Of a stretch of DNA of 41,757 nucleotides, positions 11,882 through 41,757 are shown piece by piece. Origin of the DNA: Acidobacteriota bacterium (lineage in GTDB: Bacteria > Acidobacteriota > CAIWXX01); contig JACPPM010000131.1 of assembly GCA_016191015.1 (NCBI GenBank), positions 1-41,757 on the forward strand. Reading direction: 5' to 3'. Below the pieces are notes generated by a model. The model was given only the letters and a program-made list of their open reading frames with translations. It made no database searches and had not been told where the DNA came from. A program made the translations under genes and the position numbers. The first letter of the stretch is position 1. The number at the start of each line of letters is the position of its first letter.

Positions 11882-11902
11882 GCGACGGTCCGTCGCCTCC
11901 AG

Positions 11903-12109
11903 GGCTGCGGCAAAGTCGAGGCGCCGACTCGGGCGAGGCCGTTCCCTGCGAACCCTCAGATGACGCAGATTGCCGCGCAGATTACGCAGATTCTTTCAGC
12001 ATTCAACCGACGAGCAACCTGCTCCTCACTCTCGGGTCGGCGCGAAGCAATCGGCGACATCTGCGAGTCAAACTGTGAAATCTGCGGTTTCCGGGACTTT
12101 GCCGTAGCC
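11903..12109. repeat. Dispersed element E3, copy 1 (207 bp)
   Basis: The ends are 15-bp inverted repeats, GGCTGCGGCAAAGTC and GACTTTGCCGTAGCC, with one mismatch. Inside, GCAGATT words (11956-11995) are mirrored by ATCTGCG words (12057-12087) around a central segment. Copies lie at 32562 (nearly full length) and 40691 (left part only). Copy 1 has about 21 bp more of the iterated-word region than copy 2, consistent with variable unit number. Confidence 0.85.
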
Positions 12110-12254
12110 TTGCGTCGCCTCCCCAGCGCGCGACTATGTCTCGGAGTCAGCCCGGTCTCCTTGAATACCCCGGCCGAAGGACGGAATTCATGTTCGGCAT
12201 CGAGGACTCCGGTAGCGCGTATGGAGAAGGCGAATAGAAAGGGTGTTGCGCGTG

Positions 12255-32361: not shown

Positions 32362-32859
32362 GACCAGGTCTCCGCCGATTTCGCGTCATTGAGAACGGCA
32401 CGGTAACAAAGTATGATGGGATAATGATCCATGGGCACAGGTCGGTGCGGTTCCGTCCCGCACGGCTCTGCATGGGGTTCATGCACGAGTTCCTTACCAT
32501 CGAACTCAATAATGTATCACACAACGCACGCAGCCCGCAGCAACGCAGCGGAGGCGCGCGGGGCTGCGGCAAAGTCGAGGCGCCGACTCGGGCGAGGCCG
32601 TTCCGTGCGAAACCGCAGATGGCGCAGATTCTTCCACCATTCAACCGACGAGCAACTTGCTCCACACTCTCGGGTCCGCGCGAAGCAATCGGCGACATCT
32701 GCGAGTCAATCTGGGAAATCTGCGGATTCCGGGACTTTTCCGTAGCCTTGCGGAGGCGCGGGTGACGATGGGTCGGGGCGTGCATGGAGATTCGCATGAT
32801 GATAGAGGACCGTAGGGGCGATGGTCGCGGGGAATGCGAGAGACTTCGAAGGGGGGAAG
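32362..32859. other. 498-bp intergenic region
   Basis: This is the divergent gap between ftsY and the small secreted protein. It contains E3 copy 2 (32562-32747) and a small perfect hairpin, TGCATG / CATGCA (32469-32485). I could not identify a convincing promoter for ftsY. Short open frames run through the repeat but do not look like proteins. Confidence 0.5.
32562..32747. repeat. Dispersed element E3, copy 2 (186 bp)
   Basis: It is closely similar to the copy at 11903 along its whole length, with the same inverted ends: GGCTGCGGCAAAGTC and GACTTTTCCGTAGCC (two mismatches against the left end). It lacks about 21 bp of the internal GCAGATT-word region. Similarity of the flanks (GGAGGCGCG on both sides) may extend the unit slightly. 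Confidence 0.85.
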
Positions 32860-39387: not shown

Positions 39388-40590
39388 CTATCTCAGCTCG
39401 ACCATCTCGAGCGCCAGGATATCCTGATGCCCCAGGCGCACCTGTTCGACCATCTCCGGTGACAGTGGCGCGTCTAGAGCAATGCGGGCGATGGCTGCCT
39501 GGACGCCGTCGAAGATGACATTCTCCATCTCCTGGACGTTGATGCCCGCGGCGCGGAGGGCGTCGAGCACGTGGGCGAGCACACCGGGGCGATCGCGATG
39601 ACGCACGACCAGCATGTGCGTCGCCGGCGAGTGAGCGCAGAGATTCACGACATTGGGGACCTTGCCCGTATCCCGGTACTCCCGGATGATCCGAACGGTC
39701 TCGTCGGCAATCGCCTCCTGCGCCTGCTCGGTCGAGGCCCCGATGTGGTGCGTGCCATAGACGCCGAGCTTCACGATTCCGTCCTCGAACGCACCGGTGT
39801 CGGTCGACGGCTCGCGAGCGAAAACATCCAGCCCGGCGCGAATGCCCTTTTCCTTGATCGCGTTCTCGAGTGCCACCTGATCGACCACTTCCCCACGCGA
39901 GCTGTTGATGAAAATCGATCGCGGCTTCAACGCGGTAAACACCCGCTCTCCGATGATCCCCCGCGTCTCCTTGTTCAGAGCAAGGTGCACGCTGAGAATG
40001 TCCGCCTCCGCCGCCACATCCTCGATCGACGCGGCGCGAATGACGCCGAGCGCCTCGGCGACGATCGGCGTCAGCGACCTGCTCCAGGCCACCACGTCCA
40101 GCCCGAATGCCCGAGCGCGGGGAATCATCTCTCGCCCGATCTTGCCGACGCCGATCAACCCGAGCGTCTTCCCGAAAAGGCCATCGGCCTTACCGTATTC
40201 CTTTTTGTTCCATTTGCCGGCTCGGAGGTCGGCCACGTTGTCCGGGATGCGGCGATCCACCGAGAGAATCAAGCCGAACGCGAGCTCAGCCACCGCGATC
40301 GAGTTCTTCCCCGGACAGTTCGAAACGTAGATGCCTCGTCGCGAGGCAGCCACCAAGTCGATCGTGTTGACACCGGCACCGGCGCGAACGATCAACCCGA
40401 GACGGCCAGCCTCAATCGCGGCGGCCGACACCTTCTTCCCCCTCACGACCAGCACGTCAGCTCCGGACTCCGCCAGCTTCGCCGGCAGCGCATCCTCGCC
40501 CACACCCGCCTCGTGCACCACCTCGAACCCGGCATCCCTCAGTGTCCGTACCCCTCGATCCGGAAACTTGTCCGCGACCAGGATCTTCAT
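39388..40590 (-). CDS. serA: D-3-phosphoglycerate dehydrogenase
   Basis: A 400-residue 2-hydroxyacid dehydrogenase, first enzyme of serine synthesis (3-phosphoglycerate to 3-phosphohydroxypyruvate). The NAD-binding loop is GVGKIG at 147-152. The catalytic residues appear as R232 (NSSRGEVVD), E260 (FAREP) and H282 (THHIGAST). A C-terminal ACT domain (about 325-395, RDRPGVLAHVLDALRAAGINV) suggests feedback control by serine or a related ligand. GGGGGG precedes the ATG. A small inverted repeat (GCCGTA / TACGGC, 40635-40649) lies upstream and could be an operator. Confidence 0.93.
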   Translation of the reverse strand: MKILVADKFPDRGVRTLRDAGFEVVHEAGVGEDALPAKLAESGADVLVVRGKKVSAAAIEAGRLGLIVRAGAGVNTIDLVAASRRGIYVSNCPGKNSIAVAELAFGLILSVDRRIPDNVADLRAGKWNKKEYGKADGLFGKTLGLIGVGKIGREMIPRARAFGLDVVAWSRSLTPIVAEALGVIRAASIEDVAAEADILSVHLALNKETRGIIGERVFTALKPRSIFINSSRGEVVDQVALENAIKEKGIRAGLDVFAREPSTDTGAFEDGIVKLGVYGTHHIGASTEQAQEAIADETVRIIREYRDTGKVPNVVNLCAHSPATHMLVVRHRDRPGVLAHVLDALRAAGINVQEMENVIFDGVQAAIARIALDAPLSPEMVEQVRLGHQDILALEMVELR

Positions 40591-40690: not shown

Positions 40691-40744
40691 GGCTGCGGCA
40701 AAGTCGAGGTGCCGATCTGGGCCTGTCCGTTCCGAACGAAACCG
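40691..40744. repeat. Dispersed element E3, copy 3 (left part only)
   Basis: GGCTGCGGCAAAGTC and the following 39 bp align with the left end of the copies at 11903 and 32562. Similarity stops at 40744, exactly where the intron's 3' end is expected. Mutations (GATCTGGG for GACTCGGG) show it is older or more diverged than the other two. Confidence 0.75.
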
Positions 40745-40806
40745 GTAGAGTAGGAGAACGGGCGATGCTGGACTCTAATCCGGACACGACCCGTTCTCCC
40801 CTCGTC

Positions 40807-40839
40807 GAACCGGACATGCAGGTTTCCCGCATCCGGCTC
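40807..40839 (-). ncRNA. Group II intron domain V
   Basis: The 33-nt hairpin on the minus strand starts GAGCCGGATGCGG and ends ATGTCCGGTTC. The lower stem GAGCCGGA pairs with TCCGGTTC, a GAAA-type loop caps it, and the AGC catalytic triad is present. This is the ribozyme core. Confidence 0.9.
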
Positions 40840-40890
40840 TCCCGGGATCTCTCGCCTCAGGCATTCGTAGGCAGTTGCGCAGTTGTGGTT

Positions 40891-41685
40891 TCACAGGTGG
40901 ACCAGTCCCAGAGCGTCGAATAGCGCATAGAAACTCACCCCTTTCGGCAGTCGAAAGGGCCGCTGGCTGCGCCGTCTCAGGTGGTTCGCGAGACGGTATC
41001 GGACGTACCAGTCGATGTCACGGAAAGCCATCCGTGGATACCCGAATGAGAAGTAGTTGCCCCAGCCTTTCAGGTGCCCATTCAGCATTCTGATGTAATC
41101 GGGGATAGGCATGTAGTTCCATTTCGATCCCGTCAAGCCTCGCAAGACGGCCCGTTCTTTGTTCAGGGCTCGCTTCATTGGCATGACGTTCAGGTACTTC
41201 CTGCCAGTCCGATACAGATCACGGTCATACCGAAATGTGAATCCCAGAAAGTCCAGGCCCACTCCTTCTTTCCTCAGGTCTACCACCCGGGTCTTTTCCC
41301 GATTGATCTCGAGACCCATCCAGTTCTCGAGCTTCTCCTCGACAAACGCGACAAGCTTTGCGCTTTGACACCGAGCCAGTATCACGAAATCGTCAGCGTA
41401 CCTGATCAGCTTCGCGTTGGCCCATCGCGCTGGTCCTCTGAGACCGTTGAACGCCTTGTCGAACCAGTGCAAGTACACGTTTGCCAGAAGCGGAGAGATG
41501 ACTCCGCCCTGCGGCGTTCCCCTTCTCGAACGGCTGTAGTGGGGGGTTCCCCCCTTTCCTCCAGGTGTCTCCACGATCACGGCGTCAAGCCACATCCGGA
41601 TCAGCTTCAGTACACTTCGGTCGGCTATTCGCCATTGCAGACACGCCATCAACCGATCGTGCGGGATCGAGTCGAAGGAATACAC
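40891..41685 (-). CDS. ltrA: Group II intron reverse transcriptase/maturase (N-terminally broken or incomplete)
   Basis: The visible 264 residues cover the reverse transcriptase from the FDSIPHDRLM motif through RRGTPQGGVISPLLANVYLH, the catalytic YADD (96-99) and LEINREKTRVV. The maturase (GIIM) domain follows, with HLKGWGNYFSFG near the end. Complete proteins of this family are over 400 residues. The N-terminal part is missing in this frame: an in-frame stop lies at 41694-41692, and the neighbouring frame reads KARVLDVG just upstream, which resembles the VLDVD segment normally preceding YFDSIPHD. A frameshift of about five extra bases is likely, so the gene may be inactive. GTG at 41685 is only the first possible start. 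Confidence 0.8.
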   Translation of the reverse strand: MYSFDSIPHDRLMACLQWRIADRSVLKLIRMWLDAVIVETPGGKGGTPHYSRSRRGTPQGGVISPLLANVYLHWFDKAFNGLRGPARWANAKLIRYADDFVILARCQSAKLVAFVEEKLENWMGLEINREKTRVVDLRKEGVGLDFLGFTFRYDRDLYRTGRKYLNVMPMKRALNKERAVLRGLTGSKWNYMPIPDYIRMLNGHLKGWGNYFSFGYPRMAFRDIDWYVRYRLANHLRRRSQRPFRLPKGVSFYALFDALGLVHL

Positions 41686-41757
41686 GACACACTACCCACA
41701 TCCAGGACTCGGGCCTTCCAGCTACTGTGACGATCGTTCGTCGGCGCCATCCATTCG

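What the first reader, a model, noticed from the sequence alone, without database searches (positions are those of the whole stretch)
40691..40839. Group II intron ends exactly inside a copy of repeat E3
Homology of copy 3 to the other two stops at 40744. Independently, domain V and VI place the intron 3' end (TCTAC) at 40745. The match to the base implies the intron inserted into E3, so the element, which is hairpin-forming, may be its landing site. Group II introns of class C are known to choose stem-loops.
Basis: partly seen in the sequence, partly recalled or inferred. Interest (0 to 1): 0.6.

Follow-up and report, generated by a model that had tools for sequence, protein, structure and literature searches.

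The report
Mobile intron landing in repeat arrays
A self-copying ribozyme (group II intron) sits inside a small repeated transposon-like element, and its relatives across many bacterial phyla do the same: they insert into short 9-base-period repeats by pairing a few RNA bases with whichever repeat unit their host carries.

Summary
Domains V-VI end the intron at 40745 (minus strand), and homology of the scored genomic E3 copies starts at 40744. E3 is the right end of a 213-bp MITE-like element (inverted termini, 9-10 bp target duplications, about 193 right ends in the genome). Intact copies run straight through the site (...CGCCATCTG|CGGTTTC...). The missing left half was predicted from the target duplication and found at the start of contig C154, next to a gene expected upstream of serA. 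The left intron junction itself lies in an assembly gap.

The class C reading is not supported: the reverse transcriptase lies outside the class C clade and the domain V triad is AGC. The landing-site reading holds, more broadly than proposed. In the nearest relatives (63% RT identity) all three insertions lie in a different hairpin repeat. Among 36 more distant relatives with both ends mapped, 25 sit in repeats of a heptamer (YTYYG|YG) with 9-nt period (control 2%). There EBS1-IBS1 covaries (4.6/5 against at most 3.4 permuted) and EBS3-IBS3 covaries in 32/32. This is a distinct intron lineage whose target base-pairing matches host repeat units. An upstream hairpin is common but not required.

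The parts
40745..41757 (-). Group II intron, 3' part only (end of RT/maturase ORF, DV, DVI); its 5' part lies beyond the contig end
   Evidence: Rfam and RT hits; single copy in the genome
40745..40841 (-). Domains V-VI; catalytic triad AGC; 3' splice end CTCTAC at 40745
   Evidence: RF00029, 50.9 bits, E 3e-7
40891..41685 (-). C-terminal 264 aa of RT/maturase (YADD, GIIM domain X); no endonuclease domain; frame broken just upstream of 41685
   Evidence: PF00078, PF08388, TIGR04416
40688..40744 (-). Right 57 bp of the split 213-bp MITE (the 'E3' copy); first base C at 40744 is the intron's IBS3
   Evidence: 84% to the consensus and up to 97% to individual copies; homology starts at 40744; about 193 right ends in the genome
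40678..40687 (-). Right copy of the 10-bp target duplication CTGCTCCGCC of the split MITE
   Evidence: Same 10 bp precede the MITE left end on contig C154
11900..12112 (-). Intact MITE copy 1 (213 bp, 96% to consensus), 9-bp target duplication GAGGCGACG on both sides
32559..32750 (-). MITE copy 2 (internal deletion, 87% to consensus), 10-bp target duplication CGCGCCTCCG
39388..40590 (-). D-3-phosphoglycerate dehydrogenase-like gene (serA) downstream of the split MITE; a likely upstream neighbour (DUF1015) is the first gene on contig C154
   Evidence: Pfam 2-Hacid_dh, ACT; DUF1015 at L064:367-1551

Best explanation
A mobile group II intron retrotransposed into one copy of a 213-bp MITE-like inverted-repeat element, between serA and an upstream DUF1015 gene. 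It belongs to an unassigned, non-class-C lineage found in many bacterial phyla. That lineage inserts inside heptamer units (consensus YTYYG|YG) repeated with about 9-nt period, the arms of widespread interspersed repeats. Targeting is by base pairing: EBS1 with 5-6 nt of the 5' exon (the repeat unit) and EBS3 with the first 3'-exon base, each matched to the local repeat. Shown: the split MITE, the lineage, the repeat sites, and EBS1/EBS3 covariation in relatives. Inferred: that the window's own (unassembled) EBS1 reads about CAGATG and EBS3 G; that insertion went by reverse splicing at this site without an endonuclease; and that repeats are favoured as abundant, harmless sites.
For: Junction exact and copies uninterrupted. 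TIRs and 9-10 bp target duplications; about 193 right ends against 0 in the reversed-pattern control. Predicted left flank TSD + CAAGGCTACGGC found once, at a contig end with DUF1015. Nearest relatives in G103/G163: three 3' junctions in another hairpin repeat, whose 13-mer occurs 39 times against 1 control in G163 and 36 against 6 in G103. 36 mapped sites in other genomes: unit copy at 8-10 nt in 25, control 2.3%; one site per genome 20/31, binomial p about 1e-25. G at -1 in 94%, Y at +1 in 97%. EBS1-IBS1 4.61/5 matches against permuted maximum 3.39; EBS3-IBS3 32/32 against permuted maximum 0.81. RT clade 100/99.
Against: The window intron's domain I, 5' junction and EBS sequences are not assembled, so its own pairing is inferred. 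It is one copy in one E3. 11 of 31 genomes' sites do not pass the repeat test at <=1 mismatch, although several (L212, L228, L195) look like diverged units. Relatives come largely from MAGs, where repeats assemble badly.
Confidence: 0.85

Rival explanations
1. Class C (IIC) intron: the hairpin just 5' of the site is the signal, as at terminators and attC sites; E3 is simply one more stem-loop.
For: RT's best PDB hits are class C proteins. E3 folds into a long hairpin (z -2.7), and a 6-bp stem ends 6 nt before the site. No endonuclease domain.
Against: The class C references form a separate 100/99 clade without the window RT. DV triad is AGC, and 59 AGC to 12 CGC in relatives. Only 13/37 sites have a strong 5' hairpin. 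Sites share a heptamer of 9-nt period and a 5-6 nt IBS1.
Confidence: 0.07
2. Chance: the intron transposed ectopically and happened to hit a common repeat.
For: Only one copy of this intron in this genome; E3 is abundant.
Against: 193 x 213 bp is about 0.6% of 6.43 Mb. All three insertions of the nearest relative are in another repeat, and 25/36 distant sites are in heptamer arrays against 2.3% control.
Confidence: 0.02
3. Bystander: the intron targets any site with a good 5-6 nt IBS1, and repeats only provide many such sites in intergenic DNA where insertions survive; the array itself is not recognised. (This is a rival about the last step only, compatible with the rest of the best explanation.)
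For: EBS1/EBS3 covariation explains base choice without any array recognition. Some sites have no second unit.
Against: A 6-nt IBS1 plus one 3' base occurs thousands of times per genome by chance, yet 20/31 genomes have the site inside a 9-nt-period array. Survivorship could still contribute.
Confidence: 0.3

Closest known systems
Group IIC (class C) introns, including IIC-attC
   Same: No endonuclease domain; insert next to structured or inverted-repeat DNA; short IBS1 plus IBS3
   Different: RT outside the class C clade; AGC triad; site defined by a repeated heptamer, not by a terminator or attC hairpin
RmInt1-type (class D) introns homing into an insertion sequence
   Same: Another mobile element serves as the landing pad (from general knowledge)
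   Different: RmInt1 uses one defined IS; here the repeat differs from genome to genome and EBS1 differs with it. Class D was not represented in the tree.
Pseudomonas putida group II intron at REP elements (Tobes & Pareja, PMC1525189)
   Same: Intron found at a repetitive palindromic element
   Different: Only 2 of 9 copies there, listed in a table; here a lineage-wide rule with EBS1/EBS3 covariation
Bacterial MITEs
   Same: E3: short, non-coding, terminal inverted repeats, 9-10 bp duplications, many copies
   Different: Internal 9-nt-period heptamer arms; partner transposase not found

Membership tests
Group II intron | Domain V-VI ribozyme core at the 3' end | tested here: met
   RF00029 50.9 bits over gathering 40
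Group II intron | Intron-encoded RT with maturase domain X | tested here: met
   PF00078, PF08388; TIGR04416 as fragment, 183.7 of the 300-bit cut-off
Group II intron | 5' end GUGYG and domain I with EBS1/EBS3 | not testable with these tools
   Contig ends inside the intron; in relatives GTGCG and EBS1/EBS3 are present
Class C / IIC intron | RT groups with class C proteins | tested here: not met
   Class C references in a separate 100/99 clade; window RT in another 100/99 clade (classes A, B, D, E, F and ML not represented)
Class C / IIC intron | CGC triad in domain V | tested here: not met
   AGC in the window; IIC CGC per PMC7923331
Class C / IIC intron | Stem-loop directly 5' of the site | tested here: inconclusive
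   E3 folds (z -2.7), but only 13/37 lineage sites have z < -2
Class C / IIC intron | No IBS2-EBS2 pairing | tested here: inconclusive
   Weak signal at -6..-11 (z about 3.5) in the relatives' alignment
Class C / IIC intron | No endonuclease domain | tested here: met
   ORF ends 22 aa after the GIIM domain; shared with classes D, E and F
MITE | Terminal inverted repeats | tested here: met
   CAAGGCTACGGCAAAGTC / CAGGGCTGCGGCAAAGTC
MITE | Target site duplications | tested here: met
   9-10 bp at many copies, e.g. ATCGTACCC, TCTGGCTCTG, GAGGCGACG
MITE | Short, non-coding, multicopy | tested here: met
   213 bp, about 193 right ends
MITE | Autonomous partner with the same ends | tested here: inconclusive
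   No ISAs1-type PF13808 gene in the genome; other transposase families not searched

The most novel reading that the evidence does not exclude
A phylum-spanning lineage of group II introns has evolved to live in the 9-nt-period heptamer arms of host interspersed repeats, a third kind of structured landing site beside terminators and attC. Its EBS1 is re-tuned to whichever repeat unit is common in each host.
Probability: 0.6. Interest if true: 0.75.

Novelty: new variant of a known kind. Interest (0 to 1): 0.63.

Why it matters
Bacterial group II introns are described as homing to fixed sites, following terminators or entering attC sites. A lineage that uses abundant interspersed repeats, with EBS1 and EBS3 matching the host's own repeat unit, gives a natural example of retargeting of a programmable retroelement. 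It also gives a new way to ask what the ubiquitous 'ATCTGTGnnATCTGTGG'-type repeats are. It can be tested directly by swapping repeat units and EBS1 in a mobility assay.

Tried and rejected
Class C membership: rejected on RT phylogeny and DV triad. E3 as a short REP: rejected, it is one end of a 213-bp element with TIRs and TSDs. Intron 5' end in this genome by the pattern E3-left + GTGCG: not found; the 5' half is unassembled. Other DNA copies of the intron in the genome: none beyond a 139-bp RT fragment on C146 and a DV on C176. Close relatives among 59 other relatives' genomes by DNA: none beyond DV. First genome-contig scan with the truncated RT alone found nothing; the two-sequence alignment found 151, 80 kept. 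Viral contigs: none. ISAs1-type transposase as MITE partner: none. Hairpin as universal signal: not general. IBS2: only a weak signal. Literature: nine searches of the held library found no report of this target type; closest is PMC1525189. That library is not exhaustive.

Full report
Observation. Rfam places domains V-VI at 40841-40745 on the minus strand, ending CUCUAC at 40745. A whole-genome search with the stretch around the junction gave about 40 scored places, and the E3 places start at query base 1014 (two at 1013), i.e. window 40744. In intact copies the sequence continues upstream as ...AATCTGCGTAATCTGCGCGGAAATCTGCGCCATCTG|CGGTTTCG.... Of 60 copies seen with flanks, 57 span the site; the only copy broken exactly there is the window's. 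So the intron interrupts the element after consensus base 156 of 213.

What E3 is. The whole element is 213 bp with inverted termini (CAAGGCTACGGCAAAGTC.. / ..GACTTTGCCGCAGCCCTG) and 9-10 bp target duplications at many copies, including the two other window copies (11900-12112, GAGGCGACG; 32559-32750, CGCGCCTCCG). About 193 right ends occur in the genome, against 0 for the reversed pattern. That is MITE anatomy. Its arms contain heptamer units ATCTGCG with about 9-nt period, and inverse units lie 93-123 nt upstream of the site. No ISAs1-type transposase was found.

The missing half. The window's split copy is followed by CTGCTCCGCC. If that is one target duplication, the other side should read ..CTGCTCCGCC + CAAGGCTACGGC... 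A pattern search built from this prediction found exactly one place in 6.43 Mb, 45 bases from the start of contig C154. That contig begins with MITE bases 1-56 at 100% identity, carries the same 10-bp duplication, and its first gene is a DUF1015 gene, a family that often neighbours serA (general knowledge); serA (39388-40590) lies on the other side of the split MITE. So the left end of the element at this locus is in hand. MITE bases 57-156 and the intron's 5' half are in an assembly gap and not seen.

Other introns in the genome. Four other DV motifs (C176, C270, C203, C247) belong to other introns and have no E3 at their 3' side.

Relatives. The nearest RT (63% identical) is in genome G103 of another family, and two more copies of that intron are in G163. 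Their 3' exons are TGGTTTGCATTAT and TGGTTCGCATTAT (G163) and TGTCCTGGTGGTTTAAATTT (G103). The first is part of a repeat: 39 places in G163 against 1 in the control pattern, 36 against 6 in G103. Intact copies read ACCACCAAGACACCAAG....CCTTAGTGTCCTTGGTGTCTTGG|TGGTTTGCATTAT, a hairpin of another sequence with the same kind of 8-9 nt repeated unit. The G103 intron sits one unit further upstream in what looks like the same repeat.

The lineage. An alignment of the two RTs found 151 relatives in GTDB genomes, 80 kept, from many phyla. Comparing copies gave the 5' end (GTGCGCCAAGC, GTGCGTCAGGC, GAAAGCGCCAAGC), and the 3' end is nearly always CTACTCTAC. Thirty-six introns had both ends. Examples: ATCCGCGCCATCCGCGCCATCCG|CGGTCT (several copies in one Verrucomicrobia MAG), CTCTGTGGCCCTCTGTGTCTCTG|TGAG, ATCCGTGTATTCCG|TGTGATCCGTGGTAA, CTTTGCGTCCTTCG|CGTCTTTGCGGTGA. 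At -1, G in 94%; at +1, C or T in 97%; at +2, G in 78%. A second copy of the unit at 8-10 nt occurs at 25 of 36 sites against 2.3% of random flank positions. With one site per genome it is 20 of 31, p about 1e-25. Spacings peak at -9 and -18.

Base pairing. In an alignment of the introns' first 620 nt, one column is complementary to the last 5 exon bases in nearly every intron: mean 4.61 of 5 against a permuted maximum of 3.39. One other column is complementary to the first 3'-exon base in 32 of 32 (T-A 19, C-G 12, A-T 1; permuted maximum 0.81). These are EBS1 and EBS3. They support the junctions and show that different members of the lineage carry EBS1 sequences matched to different repeat units. 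A possible EBS2 signal is weak. For the window intron the prediction is EBS1 about CAGATG and EBS3 G.

Class. The window RT falls in a 31-member clade (100/99), apart from E. rectale and GsI-IIC class C proteins, which sit in another 100/99 clade. The triad is AGC, against CGC reported for IIC (PMC7923331); in the lineage 59 AGC and 12 CGC were counted. Rfam D1D4 models match only marginally. Of 37 sites, 13 have a strong 5' hairpin. Class C is therefore not supported; other published classes were not represented in the tree, so the class stays open.

Mechanism. The intron RNP pairs EBS1 with a heptamer unit and EBS3 with the next base, reverse-splices there, and, lacking an endonuclease, would prime from a replication fork (inferred from En-minus introns, PMC4424553). 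The repeats are frequent and seem largely intergenic, so hits would be cheap for the host. Whether the array or hairpin is itself recognised, or only offers many IBS1 matches, is open.

Literature. In the held library, group II introns are recorded at terminators and attC sites (PMC4424553, PMC8919778), and once at REP elements (2 of 9 copies in P. putida, PMC1525189). No report of heptamer-array targeting was found in nine searches.

Noticed in passing
window 41686-41757 (-): The RT frame breaks just upstream of FDSIPHD: another frame reads SWKARVLDV as expected, so there is a frameshift or assembly error at the contig end.
   Followed up: partly
L032 (contig C176) 1290-1345: A near-perfect 56-nt palindrome lies about 160 nt upstream of an isolated group II domain V (CGC triad) that is 82% identical to the window's, with no RT hit nearby.
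   Followed up: no
L020 (contig C108), upstream of its E3 copy; L005: A second MITE-like family with an end like CGGGACTTTGACGAGGCCCTG and ATCTGCG units lies next to E3 copies.
   Followed up: no
L237; L187: In Verrucomicrobia MAGs one intron appears inserted at the end of another intron of the same lineage, or a partial tandem copy lies beside it.
   Followed up: partly
L173, L183 (AATCCTGTAAATCCTG|TC), L182 (CTTCGAGTCCTTCG|AG): Members with diverged units keep a matching EBS1 (CAGGAT; partly in L182, CGAATA) and a matching EBS3, including the single A-T pair at +1.
   Followed up: yes
G000 contigs C203 and C247: Two copies of another group II intron with identical DV-DVI share 3' exons that start CGCCGTA but lie in different sequence.
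   Followed up: no
L227: A contig labelled Klebsiella pneumoniae MAG carries an intron 83% identical in DNA to one from Sorangium cellulosum; probably a misnamed bin.
   Followed up: no
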